Of a stretch of 64,000 nucleotides of DNA, positions 697-12,454 are shown in pieces. Source of the stretch: Clostridiales bacterium. GTDB lineage: Bacteria; Bacillota; Clostridia; Saccharofermentanales; Saccharofermentanaceae. The stretch covers positions 1 to 64,000 of the forward strand of contig JAFWLP010000081.1 of NCBI GenBank assembly GCA_017511005.1. The letters run 5' to 3'. The position numbers and the translations under genes are program-made. Under the pieces are notes generated by a model that ran no database searches, was not told the DNA's origin, and was given only the letters and a program-made list of their open reading frames with translations. Each line of letters begins with the position of its first letter. Within the stretch, counting starts at the first letter, position 1.

Positions 697-718
697 TTAA
701 AACGGGATAATTACCCGT
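697..718 (-). terminator. Rho-independent terminator after priA
   Basis: On the minus strand ACGGG pairs with CCCGT and is followed by a short T run. The stem includes the priA stop codon itself. It closes the rpsB-to-priA block. Confidence 0.6.
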
Positions 719-2972
719 CCTGCGGATCGTTATCGAAAGACATCGGGTACTTAGTGTGATCGAAATCCTCGATAAGTCTTTTGAACACACTGTTTATGGC
801 CGACTTGTTGACAGCCTTTATTATGAAAGACATTCTGTATCTTCCTCGAAGCTCATAGATAACGCACGGAACGGGACCGAATACCTCGAACTGGTATTTT
901 CTGTCCTGGAAACCCAGAAAATCATTAAGGTACTTAGCCAGTTCGTTGGATCTTTGGATCAGCTTATCCTCATCCTGCAAAGAGAGCACTATCTCACCGA
1001 CCGCTTTATACGGAGGAAGCCTGAGCTTTTGCCTGTACTCGATCTCCTGTTCATAGAAAGCCCTGTAATTCTGGGTGCATGCGAACTGGAACAACGGCTG
1101 GTCAGGTCTGTAACTCTGTATGAAGACTTTTCCCGGAGCGTCTCCCCTTCCCGCTCTTCCCGCAGCCTGAGTGATCAGTTGGAAAGCGCGTTCTGACGCT
1201 TTGAAAGAAGATGATGCAAGCATCAGATCAGCACCGAGGACTCCAACGACCGTTACATCGGGAAAATCAAGGCCTTTGGCGATCATCTGAGTTCCGATGA
1301 GAATGGAAGCTTCTTTGTTGGCAAACTTCTCGATTATCTCTTTGTGGGCACCCGGTGTCATGGTCGAATCCTGGTCCATCCTGAGAACGTTCTCGTGCGG
1401 AAAGACCTTGTGAAGGAATTCTTCAAGCTGCTGTGTTCCGAAGCCGGCTTTGGTAAAGTGATTGCCGGTGCAGTATGAACATCTTGCCTCATACGAGGGA
1501 ACGGTATATCCGCAGTAATGGCAGATAAGACTCTGTGTGCCGCTGCGCCTGTTATTGTGAAGCGTCATCGGAACAGAACAGTTTACGCATGTTACGGCTT
1601 CCCCGCAGTCTTCACATATCAGGGTCCTCGAGAAGCCTCTCCTGTTCAGGAGAAGAATGACCTGCTTATTCTCGGAGAATGCTACGGACATAGCCTGCCG
1701 CAAAGGCAAAGACAGCATGTCGCCTGCTCCCTGCTTGATCTGCTCTTTCATATCAACGGGTATGATCTCCGGAAGCCTTGCTTCAGACCTTGCCCTTTCC
1801 TTAAGTTCAAGAAGCTTAAACGCACCGACCTGGGCAGCGTAAAAGCTCTCGACTGAAGGCGTTGCGGAACCGAGCACGACACAGCAGCCCGTTATCTTCG
1901 ATCTCATTCTCGCGATGTCACGGGCCGAATATCTTGGGTGTGATTCAGCTTTGTATGAACCGTCATGCTCTTCGTCTAGTATTATGAGTCTTAGATCGAC
2001 TGCAGGCGCGAAAACACCGCTTCGCGGACCGACGATTACTTTTGCTTTGCCAGTCCTGATATTGTCCCACTGTTCGTACCGCTGCTTATCGGTAAGCCTG
2101 CTGTGAAGAACCGCAACACTGTCACCGAGCCTGCCCTTTATCCAGTTGATCGTCTGAGGCGTAAGGGAGATCTCGGGGACCATATAGATAACGCTGCCGC
2201 CTTCGGATATTACTTTCTTTGCAATATTCAGATAGACTTCCGTCTTTCCGCTGCCGGTTATGCCGAATAAGAGATAAGTGTTGTCTTTTCTTTGTTCGAT
2301 GCCTTCAAGGATCTGATCTATGGCATTCTTCTGTTCACCGCTGAGTTCATATTCCTCGGTAAACTTGCCTGACGGAGCCTCTTCAGAAGATGCAGGTGCA
2401 CTTACATAGTCTGAAGCTTCCTTAACGAGTCTGATCAGACCTTTGTCTTCAAGTGCTTTTATCTGTGCGGCAGAGCATGAAAGCGAAGCCATCAGTTCTT
2501 TGCGCGGGCACCTTCCCTGCTCCAAAAGATACTCAAGGATGTTTATCTGGGCCGCGGATCTTAACTTCTCACTCTCAAGGACCGCCTCTGCATGTTCTCT
2601 CGATACGAGCTCGGCAAAGATCTCAACGGGGTTCTTGTGATTGACAACACAGGACGGAACCATCAGTTCGACAACATCGCCCTTTGTGCAGTTGAATCTT
2701 TCGCTTATCCTGTCGATCAGAGTTATCTGATCAGGATTGAGTACAGGCCTTCCCGAGATTACGGAACTGATATCTTTAATTACGCTTTCATCACCGTCAA
2801 ACGAATCAGTCAGTTCAATGACTACGGCACATCTTTCGTTGTCACCCTTGCCAAAAGGAACATTCACCAGCGAACCTGCAACAACAGATTCCGAAAACTC
2901 TTCAGGAATCCGGTAAGTATACAGGTTGTCAGTCTGTCTGACTGCGCCTCTCAGGATAACACTGCAATACAT
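711..2972 (-). CDS. priA: Primosomal replication-restart helicase PriA
   Basis: PriA recognises abandoned forks and reloads the replicative helicase. The 753-residue protein has the expected order: an N-terminal DNA-binding region, a Walker A motif GSGKT near residues 240-244, the DEEH box near 332, and a zinc-binding region with paired cysteines (CEDC, CVNC, CHYC, CSYC) before the C-terminal helicase motifs (GTQMIAKGLDFP, QAAGRAGR). The ATG lies 2 bp after the polC stop and has only a weak ribosome site, so translation is probably coupled to polC. All zinc cysteines and helicase motifs are intact. Confidence 0.96.
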   Translation of the reverse strand: MYCSVILRGAVRQTDNLYTYRIPEEFSESVVAGSLVNVPFGKGDNERCAVVIELTDSFDGDESVIKDISSVISGRPVLNPDQITLIDRISERFNCTKGDVVELMVPSCVVNHKNPVEIFAELVSREHAEAVLESEKLRSAAQINILEYLLEQGRCPRKELMASLSCSAAQIKALEDKGLIRLVKEASDYVSAPASSEEAPSGKFTEEYELSGEQKNAIDQILEGIEQRKDNTYLLFGITGSGKTEVYLNIAKKVISEGGSVIYMVPEISLTPQTINWIKGRLGDSVAVLHSRLTDKQRYEQWDNIRTGKAKVIVGPRSGVFAPAVDLRLIILDEEHDGSYKAESHPRYSARDIARMRSKITGCCVVLGSATPSVESFYAAQVGAFKLLELKERARSEARLPEIIPVDMKEQIKQGAGDMLSLPLRQAMSVAFSENKQVILLLNRRGFSRTLICEDCGEAVTCVNCSVPMTLHNNRRSGTQSLICHYCGYTVPSYEARCSYCTGNHFTKAGFGTQQLEEFLHKVFPHENVLRMDQDSTMTPGAHKEIIEKFANKEASILIGTQMIAKGLDFPDVTVVGVLGADLMLASSSFKASERAFQLITQAAGRAGRGDAPGKVFIQSYRPDQPLFQFACTQNYRAFYEQEIEYRQKLRLPPYKAVGEIVLSLQDEDKLIQRSNELAKYLNDFLGFQDRKYQFEVFGPVPCVIYELRGRYRMSFIIKAVNKSAINSVFKRLIEDFDHTKYPMSFDNDPQDG

Positions 2973-2974
2973 AA

Positions 2975-5900
2975 TTACTTATCGCCACTATTATCGTTCT
3001 TATCGCCACTATTATCATTGAACAGATCGAAAAGGTTGATCTGCGCACTCTCGGGAAGATCATCAAGGATACCGCCATAAGCCAGGAGTTTATCGGTAAT
3101 GGACTGGCCTACACCGGTTCTCTTCATGAAGTCATCACGGTTCTTGAACGGTGCTTCATCTCTCGCTTTCTCAATAGCTTCGCCGGCTGCGGGAGAAACA
3201 GCGCTGATGGCGCAGAAAGGAGGTCTGATCTTCTTGGGACCGGACTTCTTAAACTTTTTTCCCATGGAATCGTTAAGGGTTATAGGATCAAAAGTTATTC
3301 CTCTGGCATACATCTCCTCGACAAGCTCATAGAAATAGTACTTGAGCTTTGTGTTCGGGTCTCCTTTGGCATGCATCTCATCAGCAAGTTCGATCCTTCT
3401 CTTCTTTACCTTCTCGGGACCGTTGCACATATCCTCAGCGTTAAACAATCCCTCACCTCTGTGAGTGAAGAAAGAACAATAGTATTCTTCAGGATAGTAG
3501 ACCTTAAACCATGCAACACGGAGGGATGAGATCGCGTAAGCTGCGGCATGTGCCTTAGGGAACATGTACTTGATCTTTTGACAGGATTCGATATACCAGT
3601 CAGGCACTCCGCACGCCTTCATCTCCTGTACGTACTCGGGCCATTTCTCAATTTGCCCCTTTGCTACTTTTCCTTTACGGACGCCTTCCATGATGTCGAA
3701 AGCATCCTTATTGGGAAGTCCCCAATAGATAAGACTTGTCATGATCGAGTCACGGCATCCGATAACCGAGTTAAGGTCACAGGTTCCGCTTCTTATGAGT
3801 TCCTGGGCATTGCCCGTCCAAACGTCCGTACCATGTGAAAGACCCATGAGCTGAACAAGATCATAGAACCTCGTTGGCTTTGTTTCTTTGATCATGCCGC
3901 GGGCCATGTTGGTACCAAGCTCTGAAAGACCCAATGTTGCTGAACCTGCGTCAGTAGCGTCGATCGGGAAGCCCAATGCTTCCGTACCTGTAAGAAGACT
4001 CATTACCTTCTCGTCAGGGATAGGGATATCAGTTATGGTCACTCCCGTAATATCACTGAGCATTCTCAACACCGTAGGATCAGCGTGACCTAAGATGTCG
4101 AGCTTTAAGATCGTATCGTGCATCGCACGGAAATCGAAGTGCGTAGTGATTATCCCGCAGTCGGTCTTATTTGCCGGGAACTGGATAGGCGTGAATTCAT
4201 AAACATCCATCTCCTTTGCAATAACGACGATACCGCCGGGGTGCTGGGATGTCGTCCTCTTAACGCCTATGATGTCCCTGGCCATGAAAGCAAGATGTGC
4301 CTGGGTAAAAGGTTCACCCTTCTCCTCACAGATCTTACGGCATACACCGTATGCGTTCTTATCCTGGTATGCGCCGATCGTTCCGGCCTTGAACGTATGC
4401 GTTCCACCGAAAAGCACACCTACATAAGCATGTGCCCTCGGCTGATATTCACCTGAGAAATTAAGGTCAATATCCGGCTGTTTATTGCCTTTAAATCCAA
4501 GGAATGTCTCGAATGGAATATCCTGACCTTCAGGTATCAGCTTTTCTCCGCATTCAGGACAGTTCTTGGGAGGCAGGTCGTAACCTGAACCATATACGCC
4601 TGTATTATCAAACTCTGCATAGTTGCATTTTGGACACCTGTAATGCGGAGGCAGCGGATTAACCTCTGATATACCGCACATCGTTGCGGCAAACGAGGAA
4701 CCTACCGAACCTCTGGAACCGACAACATATCCGTCATTGTTAGACTTCTTAACAAGCCTGTATGCGATATAATACATGATCGCATAACCGTTGACGATGA
4801 TCGATTCGAGTTCCCTGTCGAGCCTGGCCTTTACAACCTCATTAAGCACGCCGTTATGACGGTACAGCTTGTTCGCCCTCGTATATGCAATATCTCTGAC
4901 ATCGGCAGCGGCTCTTGCGATCTGCGGAGGATAGGATCCGTCCGGGAACGGCTTGATGCCGAACTCGATCAGGTCAGCGATCTTGTTTGTATTATCGATA
5001 ACGACTTCTTCAGCCTTTTGCTCACCAAGATAAGAAAACTCTTTAAGCATCTCATCAGTTGTCCTGAAATACAGATCACTCTGCATCTCGGCATCATCAA
5101 ATCCCATGCTCATGAGCATATACTTACGGTAGCGGCCGTCTTCCTTATTCAGGAAATGCGAGTCAGTTGTCGCACAGCACATCATGCCGTGATCATCTGC
5201 AGTCTCTACAAGCAGTTCATTGATCACCTGTATATCAGCTTCATTCATCGCAACCGGTCCCGTGTCAGACTTTGCCGGGTCCTGTCTCATAATGAACATG
5301 TTGTTACAAAGCGGCTGGATTTCCACATAATCGTAAAGGCTTAGAATATTAAGGAACTCAGGATCTGTCTTAAGGAATTCTCTTGTGACATTTCTGTCCT
5401 TGCCGAGTCTCTTATATGCTGAGATAACGTATCTGTATATCTCACCGCGCTCGCAGGCACCGCCTATGATGATCCCGGACTTGTAATACTTCAGAAGACT
5501 CTTTGGTGTTCTGGGTCTTCTGGAATAATAATGTATCTGTGATTCAGAAACGATGCGGTACAGGTTATAAAGACCCATATTTGAACGAACAAGATAGATG
5601 ATATGGTACATTGGTGATTCCGGGAATTCACCTGTCTTCTTTGTTGATTTGATTCTTTCCGGTGTGTAATGGCCAACTGAATAGTTGATCTTAAGAGCAT
5701 CAACTGAACCAGCATCCTTAAGGCATGCGGCAAGACAGCTTGCAGATTTATAACAAGCAGAAAACAGCTCATCAAACTTATTCCCGGATGCACTATAAAC
5801 GAAGTCTGTGCCCTTGGAAGAAAGCAGTTCATCAACAGACTTATATTCACCCTTGAAATATGTCTCAAGGATATCCTCATCCGTAGTTGCAGGCATAAGG

Positions 5901-7966
5901 AACTTATGTCTGTAATATTTGTGTTCTTCAATATTGATTCCGTATCCGGCACGGCGGAGGAAAGCCAATGTTGTGAATACATCAGGACCCGTGATATAGG
6001 AATCGCCGATGAATTCAAGAAGCTCGCCCATTGCAAAATACGAATCACAGGGCTCGCCGCTTCCGGGATAGATTTTATCTTCAAATTCAGCGTGAAAATC
6101 AGCTACATGCTCAAAGACCAGTTCTTCCGGAACGACTTCATCAGAGCCGTCAGCATATTCACCGTTAACATCAAGGTCTGAATTAATTATCCGGCCAAGC
6201 AGAGCATGAGGTTCCAAAGGCTTTTTCGCGATCTTCTCATCAGTTAGTGATTCAGGTATCTCATCCGGATTCCAAAGCGATTTATCGATGTCATGCGAAG
6301 CAAACTCCATCGCATCCTGATCGGATTCACCTTCCTCCTCAGGCTTAACGGCCTTAAAGCCCTTAAGTCTGAACTTCGAAGCGCAGACAGAAGTAAAAGT
6401 ATCGCGGAGCGCATCATCGCCATTGCGCTCAATGACGATAGAGACAAAGGAACCCACGGCCTTAGGATTCTCGATGAAGTTCAGCGAAGCATCGTCATCA
6501 ACCTCTGACGGCTTGATCTTATCGTTCTTAGCATCATAAGGCAGATTATAGAAAACGGTCGGACCGTCATCCACCAGATATCCCTCGCAGCCCAGAATAC
6601 ACTTAATAGGCGCTTCGCCTGTATCCTTACGCTTTTTGTTGATCTTCTTAGCCTGTTCGAAAACATGAGGGAAAGCCTGTACAACGCCGTGATCGGTAAC
6701 CGCACATGCGGAATGGCCGAACTGTGCCGCAAGCTTTATTAGATCGGCGGGATCAGTCGTAGCATCACTCTCGCTCATCTTGGTATGCACGTGAAGCTCT
6801 ACTCTCTTGCGTGGAGCATTGTCCTTCCTCTTCGGTGGTTTCTCGGCACTGAAGAATCCGGATACGCGAAGGCTCTTATCACCTGTAAAAGAATCATTCT
6901 CGACGTTGCCCTGAATGCCGATAAAAGCACCGCTTTCGAATTCATTCTGGAATTTATCCGTTTCTTCCGGTTTAAGAAATGCGATACAGGAAATACCGTC
7001 AGTATCATCAAGACACATGAACTTGAATATTACGCTCTTGCCTGTCTTGGCAAGCTTAAAGGAATCTTCATTAAAAATGATATTTCCTGCTATATTTACA
7101 TCGAAGCATCCTATCGTAAGATCGGCGATCTTCATGAAGGTTGCCTGCTTCTTTACCTTGCCGTAAAGCTGGTTCTCGGCATTCTCCTTTGCCTTGTAGA
7201 ACGACTGCTTATCTTCCTGCTTTGCCTCTTTCCTGGCCTGTTCAGCCTTGAAAGTCCAGGTATTCTTACCGGCATTAGTCTCCGGTTCAGATGAACTTTT
7301 CTCGTCAGTTTTTTTCTTCTTCCTGCCTGACTTATTCGTCTCTTTTACTTCCTCGTCTTCAGGAAATTCCAGAGCTCCCGATTCAATAACGCGTAAGATG
7401 TCATCTTCAGGTGAGAAATCGCTTCCGGCCATATCGGTATCCATGCTCAGGATCTCGAAAGATGCCGGAATGTCATCGCCGATACATGTATGACTTGATT
7501 CGCTGACAGCATGTATAAGATTCTCGCGGTCATACTCTCCGAGCATCTGATACCAGCCTGAAGCAACATAGATCTGTGTGTTATAGGCAAGAATGCCGCC
7601 TTGGTCATAATCGATGTCGGATCTCAGTGTTATAAAGTCGGCAATATTGCTGACAGCACCCTCGTTGTCTCTGGCTATGTAATACTTGATCAGATCAACG
7701 ATCCTGTCATATGATTCCGGGAAATTAACATAGTCAAATCCCCTGAATCTCAGATTGACCTTTGTCCCGAAATCACGCTCCAGTTCCTCGACAAAAGAAA
7801 CGAGCGTATTGCTGTCTTTAATGGAATCAACACCGTCAATTATAAGATTGATCGATGCTTTTGCCTTATATATGTCGACCTTCAGAACATATAGCCCGTC
7901 CAGGTCTTTGTATTTATCGGAATCTACATTGAACAGTTCAAGTAGTTTTACGCTTTTCTTCTCCAA
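2975..7966 (-). CDS. polC: DNA polymerase III alpha subunit, PolC type, with degenerate proofreading domain
   Basis: This is the replicative polymerase of low-GC Gram-positives. Over 1663 residues (the family is usually about 1430-1450) I see an N-terminal domain and OB fold, the first PHP half (HVHTKMS, residues 392-398), the second PHP half (SQIHYYSRRPRTP, TTDSHFLN), the polymerase core (GSRGSVGSS; PDIDLNF with D1165 and D1167) and zinc-knuckle CPKC/CPEC pairs. The 3'-5' exonuclease normally inserted between the PHP halves is expected at about 470-780. There the DxExTG motif is replaced by SIVIERNG (about 509-516), the HNxxFD motif by TGPDVFT (about 659-665), and the HxAxxD motif is absent near 729-738. 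The polymerase site is complete. The 5' end overlaps ispG by 29 bp. Identity is certain; loss of exonuclease activity is inferred from the missing residues. Confidence 0.96.
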   Translation of the reverse strand: MEKKSVKLLELFNVDSDKYKDLDGLYVLKVDIYKAKASINLIIDGVDSIKDSNTLVSFVEELERDFGTKVNLRFRGFDYVNFPESYDRIVDLIKYYIARDNEGAVSNIADFITLRSDIDYDQGGILAYNTQIYVASGWYQMLGEYDRENLIHAVSESSHTCIGDDIPASFEILSMDTDMAGSDFSPEDDILRVIESGALEFPEDEEVKETNKSGRKKKKTDEKSSSEPETNAGKNTWTFKAEQARKEAKQEDKQSFYKAKENAENQLYGKVKKQATFMKIADLTIGCFDVNIAGNIIFNEDSFKLAKTGKSVIFKFMCLDDTDGISCIAFLKPEETDKFQNEFESGAFIGIQGNVENDSFTGDKSLRVSGFFSAEKPPKRKDNAPRKRVELHVHTKMSESDATTDPADLIKLAAQFGHSACAVTDHGVVQAFPHVFEQAKKINKKRKDTGEAPIKCILGCEGYLVDDGPTVFYNLPYDAKNDKIKPSEVDDDASLNFIENPKAVGSFVSIVIERNGDDALRDTFTSVCASKFRLKGFKAVKPEEEGESDQDAMEFASHDIDKSLWNPDEIPESLTDEKIAKKPLEPHALLGRIINSDLDVNGEYADGSDEVVPEELVFEHVADFHAEFEDKIYPGSGEPCDSYFAMGELLEFIGDSYITGPDVFTTLAFLRRAGYGINIEEHKYYRHKFLMPATTDEDILETYFKGEYKSVDELLSSKGTDFVYSASGNKFDELFSACYKSASCLAACLKDAGSVDALKINYSVGHYTPERIKSTKKTGEFPESPMYHIIYLVRSNMGLYNLYRIVSESQIHYYSRRPRTPKSLLKYYKSGIIIGGACERGEIYRYVISAYKRLGKDRNVTREFLKTDPEFLNILSLYDYVEIQPLCNNMFIMRQDPAKSDTGPVAMNEADIQVINELLVETADDHGMMCCATTDSHFLNKEDGRYRKYMLMSMGFDDAEMQSDLYFRTTDEMLKEFSYLGEQKAEEVVIDNTNKIADLIEFGIKPFPDGSYPPQIARAAADVRDIAYTRANKLYRHNGVLNEVVKARLDRELESIIVNGYAIMYYIAYRLVKKSNNDGYVVGSRGSVGSSFAATMCGISEVNPLPPHYRCPKCNYAEFDNTGVYGSGYDLPPKNCPECGEKLIPEGQDIPFETFLGFKGNKQPDIDLNFSGEYQPRAHAYVGVLFGGTHTFKAGTIGAYQDKNAYGVCRKICEEKGEPFTQAHLAFMARDIIGVKRTTSQHPGGIVVIAKEMDVYEFTPIQFPANKTDCGIITTHFDFRAMHDTILKLDILGHADPTVLRMLSDITGVTITDIPIPDEKVMSLLTGTEALGFPIDATDAGSATLGLSELGTNMARGMIKETKPTRFYDLVQLMGLSHGTDVWTGNAQELIRSGTCDLNSVIGCRDSIMTSLIYWGLPNKDAFDIMEGVRKGKVAKGQIEKWPEYVQEMKACGVPDWYIESCQKIKYMFPKAHAAAYAISSLRVAWFKVYYPEEYYCSFFTHRGEGLFNAEDMCNGPEKVKKRRIELADEMHAKGDPNTKLKYYFYELVEEMYARGITFDPITLNDSMGKKFKKSGPKKIRPPFCAISAVSPAAGEAIEKARDEAPFKNRDDFMKRTGVGQSITDKLLAYGGILDDLPESAQINLFDLFNDNSGDKNDNSGDK
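2978..3019 (-). repeat. 21-bp tandem duplication at the polC 3' end
   Basis: Two adjacent 21-bp units (2978-2998 and 2999-3019) differ at one base and encode a repeated NDNSGDK at the PolC C-terminus. The duplication keeps the frame and ends just before the stop codon. Confidence 0.85.
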
Positions 7967-8999
7967 CTCTGATCACTTCCCTTACAAATTCATCAACTGC
8001 ATCTGATGCAGGTATCTTTCTGACCGGTATACCTTTCTCAAACAACAGGAATTCGTCGATCCCGCCGGCTAATCCGATATCGCATTCTCTTGCTTCCCCC
8101 GGACCGTTAACGACACATCCCATTACGGCAACCTTCAGATCGTAAGGAAGGTCAGATACTTTCTTCTCTATCTGTCCCGCAAGTTCGATAAGGGGCACCT
8201 GTGTCCTTCCGCATGTTGGACAGGAAATGAATGTTATCCCGCCGTCTCTCAGCTCCAAGGCTTTGAGGATCTGCTTGGCAGTTATAACTTCATCAACGGG
8301 ATCTCCCGTAAGAGATACCCTTATCGTATCACCTATACCTTCAGCCAGAAGCGCTCCTATACCCACTGCAGACTTGACCGCCCCTTCTCTTACGGTACCC
8401 GCTTCGGTAACACCGACATGAAGAGGATAATCACACGATCTTGCCAGGATTCTGTAAGTGTCTATGGTCAGCTTCGGAGAAGATGACTTGATCGATATGA
8501 CAATATCGTCAAAATCCTGGTCTTCGAGCAGCCTTACGGCTCCAAGCGCACTCTCTGTCATTGCCTCGGCATTGACTTCACCATATTTGGCAAGGATCTC
8601 TCTTGATATGGAACCGGAATTGACACCCACACGGATAGGGATATGCCGTTCTTTGCATTTATCGGCAACAAGCCTTAACTTCTCGGGACCGCCTATATTA
8701 CCGGGATTGATCCTTATCTTGGAGGCACCGTTATCGGCCGCTGCCAAAGCAAGACGGTAATCGAAATGGATATCGGCAACAACCGGAATGGGCGACCTTG
8801 AAGTTATCTCTTTAAGGCTCTCGGCAGCCTGCATATCGGGAACTGCAACTCTGGTGATATCGCATCCGTGATCCGCAAGATCGCGGATCTGCGCAAGTGT
8901 CGCTTCAGCATCTCTCGTATCCGTATTGTTCATCGACTGGATCTTTACGGAAGACCCGCCACCGACTTCAACATTACCGATGAAGACTTTCTTCGTCAT
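7938..8999 (-). CDS. ispG: 4-hydroxy-3-methylbut-2-enyl diphosphate synthase (flavodoxin)
   Basis: IspG converts MEcPP to HMBPP in the MEP isoprenoid pathway with a 4Fe-4S cluster. The iron-sulfur ligands are visible in SCPTCGR and GCVVNGPGEA towards the C-terminus, and the N-terminal barrel begins with the typical VQSMNNTDT-like segment (here IQSMNNTDT). I chose the ATG at 8999 over a TTG at 9005 because a GGAG lies 8 nt upstream of the ATG. With dxr and uppS upstream and ispH at 22201, the window holds several steps of isoprenoid and undecaprenyl-phosphate synthesis. About 353 residues, normal for the family. Confidence 0.96.
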   Translation of the reverse strand: MTKKVFIGNVEVGGGSSVKIQSMNNTDTRDAEATLAQIRDLADHGCDITRVAVPDMQAAESLKEITSRSPIPVVADIHFDYRLALAAADNGASKIRINPGNIGGPEKLRLVADKCKERHIPIRVGVNSGSISREILAKYGEVNAEAMTESALGAVRLLEDQDFDDIVISIKSSSPKLTIDTYRILARSCDYPLHVGVTEAGTVREGAVKSAVGIGALLAEGIGDTIRVSLTGDPVDEVITAKQILKALELRDGGITFISCPTCGRTQVPLIELAGQIEKKVSDLPYDLKVAVMGCVVNGPGEARECDIGLAGGIDEFLLFEKGIPVRKIPASDAVDEFVREVIRVGEEKRKTT

Positions 9000-9019
9000 A
9001 TGCAAAACTCCTGATCCGG

Positions 9020-10366
9020 TCAGTAACCGAATATGATCCTAAGAATATCCGAGATGAAGGCAAAGACCACCAGAAGGATTATTATGACAAATCCGACTAC
9101 GGTGAGCCATTTCTCCGCTTTCTCGGACAGCTTGTGTCCTATGACCATCTCAACAACTATAAAGATGATCTGTATACCGTCAAGTCCGGGTATCGGAAGA
9201 AGATTGGAGAAAGCAAGAGCGATGGAGATAACAGCACTCAGCATTATGAGCACATATATCTTCTCGCCTACAGTATCCTTCTCATCCTTAACGACATCAT
9301 TGACCATTGTCGTGATACCTATCGGACCCGATACCAAATTATAAGCTTTTTCTTTCCCGGCAATTATGTCTTTTATGCCTCTTATCGAGATATTACCGAT
9401 CGTAGCCGGCATTTTGGCCGCATAACCTAACGCAGCGAAAAAATGCGAAGGCGAATCGATCACATAAGACATCAGCCTTATTCCCCTGGCGGTTGCATAA
9501 TCAACATAATGAGGAATGATCTCATCTTCCATCGTCACGCCGTCTCTTATGTATGTAACGGTAAGGACGTCATCAGTAACGTTATAGATAAATTCCTCAA
9601 ACTCTTCATCGGAAACCGAGACACCGTTTATGTGGGTAATGTAATCCCCCGGCTTAAGGACAGGATTATAATCGTTCTGATCCTCATCAACAGAATGAAC
9701 GAGCATTCCTCCGTTCTGGTTCGCCTCATCCGCCATGTTTACGGTAATGCCAAGCATGGCACGGTTCCTGATGACAGGTGTGAGTACGAGATCGTAATCC
9801 TTGCCTGTCTCCTGGGATCTGAGAGTAAGTGTCATCGGCTCGGCCGGATCGGCGGCATCGAGTTCATAGTAAAGGTCATAAGTCGTATAGATCTTATTGC
9901 CGTTGATCCTTCTGATATCATCCCCTGGTGTATACTCGGAAGCGACCTCATATGTCTGTGTGCCCTCGATGGCAGGTCCGATCTCCGTCGATACAAAGCC
10001 CGTTACGCAGAACATAGCGACAAAGATTAGAAAACCCAGTATCAGGTTCATGACGGGACCCGCAAGAGAGACCAGCAGTCTCTTGAATCTCGGCTGATTT
10101 ATGAGCAGATCGGGCTCATTGCCGTTGACAACATAACCGGCTTCGTCTATCTCCGTGAATCTGACGTAAGCGCCGATCGGAATGAGCCTGATCGTGAAAT
10201 TCACGTCTTTATGCTTCCAGGATATCAGCTTTGGACCGACAAATATCGATACTTCAAACACTTTTATCTTGAGAAGTCTGGCAACCCAGAAATGTCCGAG
10301 CTCATGAAGAGTTGCGAGAACTCCGAGCATTATTATCACGAAAATTATGCTTCTTAATATACTCAT
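9020..10366 (-). CDS. rseP: Site-2 intramembrane metalloprotease RseP (M50)
   Basis: This zinc protease cuts membrane-bound signalling proteins and remnant signal peptides within the bilayer. Its zinc site HELGH lies in the first membrane helix (about residues 21-25), a PDZ-like region fills the middle, and a late helix carries the third-ligand motif PIPGLDG. The ATG at 10366 overlaps the dxr stop codon as TAATG, so the genes are translationally coupled. An upstream in-frame extension is rejected because the natural signal helix starts at MSILRS. About 448 residues. The position between dxr and ispG is the conserved order for this block. Confidence 0.94.
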   Translation of the reverse strand: MSILRSIIFVIIMLGVLATLHELGHFWVARLLKIKVFEVSIFVGPKLISWKHKDVNFTIRLIPIGAYVRFTEIDEAGYVVNGNEPDLLINQPRFKRLLVSLAGPVMNLILGFLIFVAMFCVTGFVSTEIGPAIEGTQTYEVASEYTPGDDIRRINGNKIYTTYDLYYELDAADPAEPMTLTLRSQETGKDYDLVLTPVIRNRAMLGITVNMADEANQNGGMLVHSVDEDQNDYNPVLKPGDYITHINGVSVSDEEFEEFIYNVTDDVLTVTYIRDGVTMEDEIIPHYVDYATARGIRLMSYVIDSPSHFFAALGYAAKMPATIGNISIRGIKDIIAGKEKAYNLVSGPIGITTMVNDVVKDEKDTVGEKIYVLIMLSAVISIALAFSNLLPIPGLDGIQIIFIVVEMVIGHKLSEKAEKWLTVVGFVIIILLVVFAFISDILRIIFGY

Positions 10367-11547
10367 TATCTGATTTTTCCGTCTATTATTTCTTCTGCAT
10401 ATATTCTGGCATCCCTGTCGGTCTGACATATCGAACCGATCGTCAGTTCACAGGAGGATACCGAAGGTTCCATTTTCGAGACTGTCTCGAAAACAGTCTC
10501 CTCAATCCCGAGGAAACCGATCTTTCCGGCAAGATATGCCCTAACGGCTGATTCATTTGCCGCGTTCATTACCGTCGGGATAAGACCGCCTTTCCTGCCA
10601 GCCTCGTAAGCAAGCCCTACAAGTCTGAAAACATCCGTGTCACAGGGCTCGAACGTAAGGCTCGACATGGCCGCGTCAAACGGATCGAACTCCGTAACGA
10701 TCGACGGTCCGCGCTGAGGATAATACAGAGCAACCTCGATCGGAAGGATCATTGATGGCTTGCCCATCTGAGCAAGAACAGAACCGTCTTTGAGCCTGAT
10801 CATCGAATGGATGACACTCTGGGGGTGAACCACGACATCTATCCTGTCACACTCAATGCCGTACAGATGATGCGCCTCGATGATCTCAAGGCCTTTATTC
10901 ATCATGGTGGCGGAATCTATCGTTATCTTGCCACCCATGTTCCATGTCGGATGGTGAAGAGCATCTTCAACAGTGACATTCCCCAGTTCTTCTCTGGACC
11001 TGCCCCTGAACGGACCGCCGGAAGCCGTTATCAGTATCCTGTCAAGGTCCGCCCTGTCTTCACCTTTAAGACACTGCCAGATGGCCGAGTGTTCGCTGTC
11101 GATCGGGAGCATCATGACGCCCTTTTCCCTGATAAGAGGCATGATCACGTCTCCGCCGGCAACAAGTGTCTCTTTGTTGGCAAGTGCAATGTCCTTCCCT
11201 GCCAAAACGGCATGATATACCGGTTCGAGGCCGGCAAATCCGACGATCGCACCAACGACAGTATCGCAGCTGTCCAGAGTGGCACAGGCGATATTGCCTT
11301 CTTTTCCCGCGAGCACTTCGGTACCGGTATCAGAACCTCTGAGCCTTTCGGAAAGCTCTTTTGCCTTCTGTTCATCAGCCATGGAACATACCTTTGGTCT
11401 GAATTCCAGTATCTGACCGTAAAGCGTATCAATGTCACCGCCGCATGTAAGCGATTCGACGGTAAAGTCATCCGGTGCTTTTCTTACTACTTCAAGGGTC
11501 TGTTTACCGATGGAACCCGTGGAACCCAATATGGACAATCTGCGCAT
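10366..11547 (-). CDS. dxr: 1-deoxy-D-xylulose 5-phosphate reductoisomerase
   Basis: Dxr makes MEP from DXP with NADPH, the first committed MEP-pathway step. The N-terminal nucleotide-binding motif GSTGSIGKQT (residues 8-17), the ASGGPFRG loop and the metal/substrate region SATMMNKGLEIIEAHHLYG are all present. Length of 393 residues is normal. It lies between cdsA and rseP; the stop overlaps the rseP start by one base. Confidence 0.97.
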   Translation of the reverse strand: MRRLSILGSTGSIGKQTLEVVRKAPDDFTVESLTCGGDIDTLYGQILEFRPKVCSMADEQKAKELSERLRGSDTGTEVLAGKEGNIACATLDSCDTVVGAIVGFAGLEPVYHAVLAGKDIALANKETLVAGGDVIMPLIREKGVMMLPIDSEHSAIWQCLKGEDRADLDRILITASGGPFRGRSREELGNVTVEDALHHPTWNMGGKITIDSATMMNKGLEIIEAHHLYGIECDRIDVVVHPQSVIHSMIRLKDGSVLAQMGKPSMILPIEVALYYPQRGPSIVTEFDPFDAAMSSLTFEPCDTDVFRLVGLAYEAGRKGGLIPTVMNAANESAVRAYLAGKIGFLGIEETVFETVSKMEPSVSSCELTIGSICQTDRDARIYAEEIIDGKIR

Positions 11548-11587
11548 TATAGCTCTCCCGACAAATGATTAAATGTTGACATGCCGC

Positions 11588-12454
11588 TCACAGGAAATTA
11601 TTGGCGATTATCGCAAGCAGCAGTGCCGTCGGGATCGTAAAGAACGCGCTGTCGAATCTGTCGAGCATCCCGCCGTGTCCCGGGAAAATGTTGCCGAAAT
11701 CCTTTATGCCGGTCCTTCTCTTGATAACGGAGCAGAACCAGTCACCTAGCTGCGACATTATGGATATGAGAATGCCCAGAAGGAACATTATGATCCCATA
11801 TGGAACGATCCCCATCTGTATGTTTTCGAGCTTATAGATAACCACACAGGAATAGATCAATACCGCGAGCGCGCAGAAAACTGCTCCGCCAATACAACCT
11901 TCCCATGTCTTCTTGGGAGAAATATGCGGAACTATCTTGTGCTTGCCGATGGCAACACCTGTAAAATATGCGAATGTATCCGTGGCCCAGGGCGCGAAAA
12001 GTCCTATGATCATGTAGAACCAGCCGTGAGGCAGGAAGAGCATCGCAAGATCCAGACAGAATAACGGGAATGAGATATAAAAGATCATTCCCCCGGTGAA
12101 CATGCCGTTGAGAAAGGATTTCTCATCATACGGCCGCGCAAGGGGAAGCGCGATTCCGCAGGAAACACAATACATGCAGACGACTATCAGATAAAGTGCC
12201 ATCGTATTCTCGACCTTGAGTTCGAAAGCAAGTCCTGCGATCACTACTATAACAGTAAGAGCAATGCCGATGATGAGAAGGAATGCCGACGGTTGATAAC
12301 CGCCGTGCTTCAGTGCCTTGAACATCTCGATGCACGCGAAGACTCCGATGATTCCAGACATTATCACAGCCGTGACCGGCCAGAAATAAGCCGGCAGGAA
12401 GAACAGCAGCACCAGAACGGTAAAGATAATGCCTGTAATAATCCTCTGTCTCAA
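11588..12454 (-). CDS. cdsA: Phosphatidate cytidylyltransferase
   Basis: CdsA makes CDP-diacylglycerol, the branch point for membrane phospholipids. The 288-residue protein is almost entirely hydrophobic, with about seven to eight membrane helices, and has the CDS signature around KHKIVPHISPKKTWEG and the C-terminal FGNIFPGHGGMLDRFDS segment. The start appears to be TTG at 12454, one base after the uppS stop, with AAGG six bases upstream. No in-frame ATG precedes the first helix, so TTG is preferred. Confidence 0.94.
   Translation of the reverse strand: MRQRIITGIIFTVLVLLFFLPAYFWPVTAVIMSGIIGVFACIEMFKALKHGGYQPSAFLLIIGIALTVIVVIAGLAFELKVENTMALYLIVVCMYCVSCGIALPLARPYDEKSFLNGMFTGGMIFYISFPLFCLDLAMLFLPHGWFYMIIGLFAPWATDTFAYFTGVAIGKHKIVPHISPKKTWEGCIGGAVFCALAVLIYSCVVIYKLENIQMGIVPYGIIMFLLGILISIMSQLGDWFCSVIKRRTGIKDFGNIFPGHGGMLDRFDSAFFTIPTALLLAIIANNFL

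What the first reader, a model, noticed from the sequence alone, without database searches (positions are those of the whole stretch)
5750..6560. PolC with an apparently dead 3'-5' proofreading exonuclease
PolC normally carries a DEDD exonuclease inserted in its PHP domain. Here the insert region is present and even longer than usual, but none of the catalytic motifs survives: the DxExTG position reads SIVIERNG, the HNxxFD position reads TGPDVFT and no HxAxxD is found near residues 729-738. The PHP halves and the polymerase aspartates (1165, 1167) are intact. The other reading frames of the region contain no such motif, so this is not a simple frameshift. If correct, this lineage copies its genome with a proofreading-deficient replicase or supplies proofreading in trans (DnaQ-like protein, or via the PHP site).
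Basis: partly seen in the sequence, partly recalled or inferred. Interest (0 to 1): 0.78.

Follow-up and report, generated by a model that had tools for sequence, protein, structure and literature searches.

The report
PolC replicase with a pseudo-exonuclease domain
The main DNA-copying enzyme of these gut and rumen bacteria has kept its built-in proofreading domain but lost that domain's active site, while a second, zinc-type nuclease site in the same protein stays intact, so that second site probably does the proofreading.

Summary
The window's only PolC (2975-7966, minus strand, 1663 aa) carries a 321-aa insert in its PHP domain where PolC normally has a DEDDh exonuclease. The insert descends from that exonuclease (profile-profile E 2.6e-5; 15 controls 0.042 or worse; 1.6e-17 against the intact domain of a sister genus), but its active site is gone. 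It is not an assembly error: 64 rows that I place in the genus lack the site, under purifying selection. In the order the state changed at least 6 times on the tree found (4 forced by strong branches), and a single dead clade is rejected (p-AU 7e-49). Outside the order, 63 of 344 clostridial PolCs have no alignable exonuclease; 47 of the 49 such genomes read have it deleted. All 135 PolC genes read with a dead or missing exonuclease keep the nine PHP ligands. The one broken PHP site among 70 exonuclease-intact rows sits beside an intact exonuclease; three short accessory copies have neither. Standalone DnaQ-type exonucleases are patchy. Best reading: the PHP site proofreads and the pseudo-domain is a structural part. 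Exonuclease-less PolC is published; a retained, conserved pseudo-exonuclease is a new variant. No activity was measured and no structure predicted.

The parts
2975..7966 (-). polC, PolC-type DNA polymerase III alpha, 1663 aa, TTG start; the only full polC match in the held genome
   Evidence: ORF; NF001688 1234.5 bits, cut-off 873; TIGR01405 1111.8, cut-off 1043.45
6572..6811 (-). first half of PHP domain (residues 386-465): ligands H392, H394, D401, H426, E461
5615..6571 (-). pseudo-exonuclease insert (residues 466-784): degenerate DEDDh domain; catalytic columns V511, E513, T666, D732, A737
5132..5614 (-). second half of PHP domain (residues 785-945): ligands H788, C838, D935, H937
3017..5131 (-). 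polymerase core and HhH (residues 946-1650); catalytic D1165 and D1167 intact
7938..12454 (-). upstream neighbours on the same strand: ispG, rseP, dxr and a cdsA-like gene (the last below its NCBIfam cut-off)
711..2972 (-). downstream neighbour priA

Best explanation
This is the chromosomal PolC, in which the inserted DEDDh proofreading exonuclease has become a pseudo-enzyme (shown from sequence and homology). The domain is kept under purifying selection, so it still does something, most likely structural: holding or guiding the primer strand next to the PHP channel, or docking a partner (inferred). 3'-5' proofreading by this PolC is most likely carried out by the zinc-type PHP site in the same protein, as in Thermus and Mycobacterium DnaE, because in every main PolC read that lacks the DEDDh site the nine-residue PHP site is complete (pattern shown, activity inferred).
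For: Active site not complete in any of 64 rows placed in the genus. Homology to the exonuclease: A2 vs A3 E 2.6e-5, probability 75%, against E 0.042-0.73 for 15 controls; intact sister genus vs A2 1.6e-17. dN/dS of the insert 0.014-0.101 in 12 of 13 pairs, one not computable; residues 615-700 are 84.5% identical in the genus, polymerase 86.4%. PHP HHDHEHCDH in 140 of 140 rows (135 distinct genes) with dead or missing exonuclease (110 rows, 30). The only broken PHP among 70 exonuclease-intact rows is L122. Three short PolC-like paralogs without an exonuclease have broken PHP sites, so the site can decay when the copy is accessory. Six label changes on the tree, one dead clade rejected. Polymerase not relaxed: median PolC/DnaE distance ratio 0.79 in dead-dead pairs, 0.84 in intact-intact pairs of 13 genomes. 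13 of 27 near-complete genomes of the genus have a single RNase_T match, in an ORF of L002's size.
Against: The PHP site is also intact in 69 of 70 exonuclease-intact rows, so within Clostridia the association is not statistically informative by itself. G. kaustophilus PolC PHP, with 8 of 9 ligands, showed no exonuclease activity, and the authors suspect that further residues matter (PMC3666897, passages). No PHP column separated dead from intact cleanly. These genomes also have DnaE1 with an intact PHP site (20 of 21 DnaE read), which could carry high-fidelity synthesis instead. The window's genome does have a DnaQ-like protein. No structure model could be made.
Confidence: 0.58

Rival explanations
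1. Proofreading is supplied in trans by a standalone DEDDh exonuclease: the 220-aa DnaQ-like protein with a C-terminal zinc-ribbon-like stretch (L001) or the 329-aa protein L002, whose best NCBIfam match is KapD (below cut-off).
For: Both are in the window's genome, with DEDDh-like motifs that I read from their translations. 13 of 13 single-match genomes of the genus have their one RNase_T match in an ORF of L002's size, 329-359 aa (kinship to L002 taken from size only).
Against: L001 is matched at E 1e-15 in 32 of 85 genomes of the genus, some only distantly, and also in genomes with intact PolC exonuclease. G038 (96% complete, dead exonuclease) has no PF00929 match at all.
Confidence: 0.15
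2. PolC is no longer the main replicase; DnaE1 with its own intact PHP site copies most of the genome, so PolC proofreading is not needed.
For: DnaE PHP is intact in 20 of 21 read. Two genera of the order have no PolC match at E 1e-30 (16 genomes listed). Timinskas et al. raised this possibility for clostridial PolC (PMC3919608, passages).
Against: PolC polymerase is as constrained relative to DnaE in dead lineages (0.79) as in intact ones (0.84). Polymerase dN/dS is 0.009-0.044 in 13 pairs. The pseudo-domain and PHP site are also kept.
Confidence: 0.16
3. The replicase is truly without proofreading and the lineage tolerates a high mutation rate or relies on mismatch repair.
For: The DEDDh site is dead, and I met no demonstration of PHP exonuclease activity for a PolC in the passages read. 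Mismatch-repair genes were not searched.
Against: PHP ligands are kept in all 135 genes. In B. subtilis the strain with proofreading-deficient polC and deficient mutL reached about a 6000-fold mutation rate, and a section heading says the highest rates are counter-selected (PMC11890065, passages).
Confidence: 0.07
4. The insert has built a new nuclease or metal site from other residues.
For: Acidic and histidine residues invariant in 36 inserts, e.g. D518, E545, E547, D559, D561, D623, D630, E680, H766.
Against: They are not at the DEDDh positions; the insert is strongly acidic (net -31); at least one other dead lineage has not kept the domain recognisably (f2 g6).
Confidence: 0.04

Closest known systems
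PolC lacking the Exo insertion (Timinskas et al. 2014, PMC3919608, passages read)
   Same: Clostridial PolC paired with DnaE1, without a DEDDh proofreading site; PHP site kept in 50 of 50 such proteins read here
   Different: There the domain is deleted (insert 11-53 aa in 48 of the 50 read here); here a 321-aa degenerate but conserved domain remains
Canonical PolC of Bacillota with DEDDh exonuclease (E. faecium PolC, 9QPC, PMC12592400, passages read)
   Same: Split PHP, polymerase, HhH; insert at the same place in the PHP domain
   Different: Active site of the insert lost; position 8 of the PHP site is Asp here, Asn in E. faecium (alignment) and in G. kaustophilus (PMC3666897)
Mycobacterium tuberculosis DnaE1 PHP-exonuclease (PMC5636811, passages read)
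   Same: Nine-residue PHP metal site, in the replicative polymerase, as presumed proofreader
   Different: DnaE1, not PolC; there the loop beside the PHP site is 29 residues, here it holds the pseudo-exonuclease; activity shown there, not here
Pol I orthologs, PolA2 and PolB2 with inactivated 3'-5' exonuclease domains (PMC12926913, passages and one section read)
   Same: Polymerase that keeps a dead DnaQ-like domain
   Different: Those are tied there mainly to repair or translesion synthesis; [quoted passage not shown]

Membership tests
PolC-type DNA polymerase III | Equivalog models above cut-off | tested here: met
   NF001688 1234.5 vs 873; TIGR01405 1111.8 vs 1043.45
PolC-type DNA polymerase III | Polymerase catalytic aspartates | tested here: met
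   D1165, D1167
PolC-type DNA polymerase III | Integral DEDDh exonuclease (typical, not universal) | tested here: not met
   exonuclease-less PolC is an accepted variant (PMC3919608)
DEDDh (RNase_T/DnaQ) exonuclease | Descent from the PolC exonuclease domain | tested here: met
   same insertion point
DEDDh (RNase_T/DnaQ) exonuclease | Five catalytic residues | tested here: not met
   V, E, T, D or A, A at the five columns
Exo-less PolC (Timinskas 2014) | No Exo insertion | tested here: not met
   321-aa insert
PHP-exonuclease polymerase (Taq/Mtb DnaE type) | Nine metal ligands | tested here: met
   HHDHEHCDH
PHP-exonuclease polymerase (Taq/Mtb DnaE type) | Zinc-dependent 3'-5' exonuclease activity | not testable with these tools
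   needs purified protein

The most novel reading that the evidence does not exclude
A replicative PolC has switched from DEDDh to PHP-only proofreading, and the dead DEDDh domain, inserted in the very loop that lines the PHP channel, has been rebuilt into an accessory module (primer guide, regulator or docking site) of that zinc proofreader; the switch happened several times, giving a natural series from active domain through pseudo-enzyme to deletion.
Probability: 0.3. Interest if true: 0.8.

Novelty: new variant of a known kind. Interest (0 to 1): 0.6.

Why it matters
Whether the PHP domain of a PolC can proofread looks open: the one tested case in the passages I read (G. kaustophilus) was negative but lacks one ligand. 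These PolCs have no other evident intrinsic candidate and all nine ligands, so they make the question directly testable. They also give several natural losses, with intact sister genera as controls, of a domain described as a hallmark of PolC, and they run against a 2026 survey statement that in Pol III alpha the DnaQ-type proofreader is not the one inactivated.

Tried and rejected
Assembly error or frameshift: rejected, because 64 rows from many assemblies share the state and the insert is under purifying selection.

A second, normal polC elsewhere in the genome: none found, but the genome is only 76% complete.

A compensating dedicated DnaQ: tested by distribution and not supported, not excluded.

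Relaxed selection on the PolC polymerase: not seen.

PHP substitutions that go with exonuclease loss: scanned with one vote per lineage (28 dead, 53 intact). The top columns are variable positions with mixed residues, and I read no signal in them.

Profile of the insert against solved structures: the top hit is a DnaQ but at E = 1, which is no evidence.

The diverged 145-159-aa inserts of two f36 PolCs: L272 has no detectable similarity to the exonuclease profile (E 0.24); L286 was not compared. I do not count them as pseudo-exonucleases.

Structure prediction and fold comparison were planned and could not be run. Mismatch-repair genes were not searched.

Rows dropped or placed by me: six partial PolCs and the G058 paralog were left out of the table. 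Of the 64 'genus' rows, 4 carry the genus code, 59 are named loci that I placed there from the alignment, and one is the window. The loci L083-L111 were not read. The trees use 84 and 39 chosen rows. In the class survey G299, G400 and G457 are cut by contig ends and not classed, G190 and G320 start inside the exonuclease region, and 14 of the 63 were not read.

Full report
WHAT IS THERE. The window holds one open frame for PolC, 2975-7966 on the minus strand, 1663 aa. It passes both PolC equivalog cut-offs and lies between priA and ispG-rseP-dxr-cdsA-like genes, so it looks like the chromosomal gene. The genome (1.84 Mb, 82 contigs, 76% complete) gave one full PolC and one DnaE. Pfam sees PHP, polymerase and HhH domains but no exonuclease.

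THE INSERT. Between the PHP halves there are 321 residues where six intact references have 207-208 and three intact members of the order 221-233. The five DEDDh columns hold V511, E513, T666, D732 (or A) and A737. In 64 rows that I place in the genus, motif I Asp is V, A, T, S or R in 60 and D in 4, motif I Glu is E in 10, and motif II Asp is never D. RNase_T matches 0 of 36 such inserts and 35 of 35 intact ones.

HOMOLOGY. A profile of 36 inserts aligned with a profile of 35 intact exonucleases at E 2.6e-5, probability 75%, over 192 columns with the motifs in register. Fifteen controls (2 reversed, 8 column-shuffled, 5 other PolC regions) gave E 0.042 to 0.73. Intermediates close the gap: genera 2-4 of the same family, also dead, match the intact profile at 1.7e-11 and the window's profile at 2.5e-26; intact genus 5 of the family matches the window's profile at 1.6e-17. 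Other dead lineages match the intact profile at 7.9e-14 (f2 g12), 5.1e-15 (f2 g10) and 3.9e-7 (f3), but f2 g9 only at 0.005 and f2 g6 at 0.045, that is, hardly or not at all. So the window's insert descends from the exonuclease, and some related inserts have drifted beyond recognition.

SELECTION. Nei-Gojobori dN/dS of the insert is 0.014-0.101 in 12 of 13 pairs (one not computable), against 0.009-0.044 for the polymerase (13 pairs) and 0.063-0.234 for the N-terminal domain (12 pairs); several dS values exceed 1 and are rough. Mean identity in the genus is 68.3% for the insert and 84.5% for residues 615-700, against 86.4% for the polymerase. The insert is strongly acidic, net -31, against -5 and -11 in two intact clostridial references and -16 to -21 in three intact members of the order. 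The domain is kept, not decaying.

HOW WIDE IN THE ORDER. An order-wide search found PolC in 164 of 188 genomes. I read 60 fetched regions from these besides 76 loci from named records, most of them rumen or gut MAGs labelled Ruminococcaceae, Clostridiales or Saccharofermentans. Dead: the genus-1 rows, the members read of genera 2-4 of the family, f2 g6, g9 and g12, one member of f2 g10, and G040 in f3. Intact: f1 g5, f2 g8, two members of f2 g10, the six other f3 members readable there, and the f4 members read. Trees built without the insert need 6 changes of state, 4 forced by strong branches, and holding all dead rows together is rejected (p-AU 6.8e-49). A regain of lost catalytic residues is implausible, so I take these as several losses (inference).

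THE CLASS. Of 393 class genomes 364 have a PolC match at 1e-100: 20 in this order and 344 outside. Of the 344, 149 appear in the rows and all align through the exonuclease region. The other 195 were examined, where 26 of 80, 23 of 80 and 14 of 35 align only from model position 563 or later: 63 of 344. Three more (G299, G400, G457) are cut and not classed. I read 50 proteins from 49 of the 63 genomes: 48 have an insert of 11-53 aa (domain deleted), and two, both of family f36, have an insert of 145-159 aa, which in the one tested shows no similarity to the exonuclease (E 0.24). PolC lacking the Exo insertion in Clostridia and Negativicutes was reported in 2014 as 6% of PolCs (PMC3919608, passages). 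What I found no report of is a retained, conserved pseudo-exonuclease: the listings of full-text searches showed none, and a 2026 survey states the opposite for Pol III alpha (PMC12926913, passages and one section). Most subscription papers are not in that library.

WHO PROOFREADS. All nine PHP ligands are present in 140 of 140 rows (135 distinct genes) whose exonuclease is dead or missing, and in 69 of 70 rows with an intact one. The exception, L122, has HKDRELLNH with an intact DEDDh site. Three short PolC-like paralogs (728-771 aa), in genomes that also have a main PolC, lack the exonuclease and have broken PHP sites (HHDRDGCNH, HHDHEPANH, HHLLEKGNH). So among the PolCs read I saw no main copy without at least one intact site, and the PHP site does decay in accessory copies. 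A like relation is published for Pol III PHP domains and separate exonucleases (PMC3666897, passages). The caution is that PHP is nearly always intact in Clostridia anyway, and that G. kaustophilus PolC PHP (Asn at position 8) was inactive (same paper). E. faecium PolC also has Asn there (alignment); the dead-exonuclease PolCs here have Asp.

ALTERNATIVES TESTED. A DnaQ-like protein with a zinc-ribbon-like tail exists in the window's genome (L001), but is matched at E 1e-15 in 32 of 85 genomes of the genus, some only distantly. Of 27 near-complete genomes of the genus (not every PolC of these was read) 13 have a single RNase_T match, in an ORF of 329-359 aa, the size of L002, whose best NCBIfam match is KapD below cut-off. 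Two intact-exonuclease genomes also have such weaker matches in ORFs of 424 and 561 aa, and a third in one of 345 aa, whose kinship to L002 I did not test. G038, dead, has none. PolC is not relaxed relative to DnaE. DnaE PHP is intact in 20 of 21, so DnaE1 remains a possible high-fidelity partner. Two related genera have no PolC match (16 genomes listed); the DnaE search found a DnaE in the 7 of these tested, but at its threshold it misses known PolCs too and so does not confirm the absence.

MECHANISM. Shown: dead DEDDh site, common descent, purifying selection, PHP ligands kept, recurrent change of state. Inferred: the PHP site proofreads; the pseudo-domain has a structural role. Two published facts make the latter plausible: the PolC exonuclease sits in the loop that in M. 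tuberculosis DnaE1 lines the PHP channel (PMC5636811, passages), and the E. coli exonuclease subunit tightens the polymerase-clamp complex (PMC3642679, passages).

LIMITS. No structure could be predicted, so a metal site rebuilt from other residues is not excluded. Genome absences rest on near-complete but mostly unfinished genomes. The DEDDh motif readings of L001 and L002 are mine from the translations.

Noticed in passing
L290:5943-9710 (G058; also L114): A second PolC-like protein of 1256 aa without NTD/OB, with a dead pseudo-exonuclease, three polymerase aspartates replaced (R, P, E) but an intact PHP site. Neighbours match DnaB-like ATPase, WYL, ADP-ribose-binding and RNA 2'-phosphotransferase models. 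It could be a free-standing PHP nuclease.
   Followed up: partly
L287:3708-5894, L288:3976-6273, L289:3623-5938: Short PolC-like paralogs (728-771 aa) with broken PHP sites in three genomes of different families; the L287 one lies between a gene with matches to PADLOC Orf5/HEC-06/SspE models and a WYL gene. The paralogs themselves have no PADLOC match.
   Followed up: partly
genomes G006, G007 (f2 g7) and G018-G031 (f2 g11): No PolC match at 1e-30 in the 16 genomes listed, though other genera of f2 match at 1e-210 or better; possibly DnaE-only clostridia. One search found a DnaE in the 7 tested but cannot confirm PolC absence.
   Followed up: partly
L122 (G009): PolC with intact DEDDh exonuclease but broken PHP site (HKDRELLNH), on a long branch: the mirror image of the finding.
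   Followed up: partly
G286:C12:133482-137711 and G476:C7:14899-19095 (f30 g111): polC matches over the family cut-off with several in-frame stops: 2 TGA, 3 TAG, 1 TAA in G286 and 1 TAG, 3 TAA in G476.
   Followed up: no
L001:1333-1995: DnaQ-like exonuclease with a C-terminal zinc-ribbon-like cysteine stretch (CPVCG...CASYPDC), patchy in the family.
   Followed up: partly
L208 (G050): DnaE with one altered PHP ligand (HHSHEHCDH) in a genome whose PolC exonuclease is intact.
   Followed up: no
L272 (G267) and L286 (G244), family f36: Two clostridial PolCs keep a PHP insert of 145-159 aa with no recognisable exonuclease; origin unknown.
   Followed up: partly
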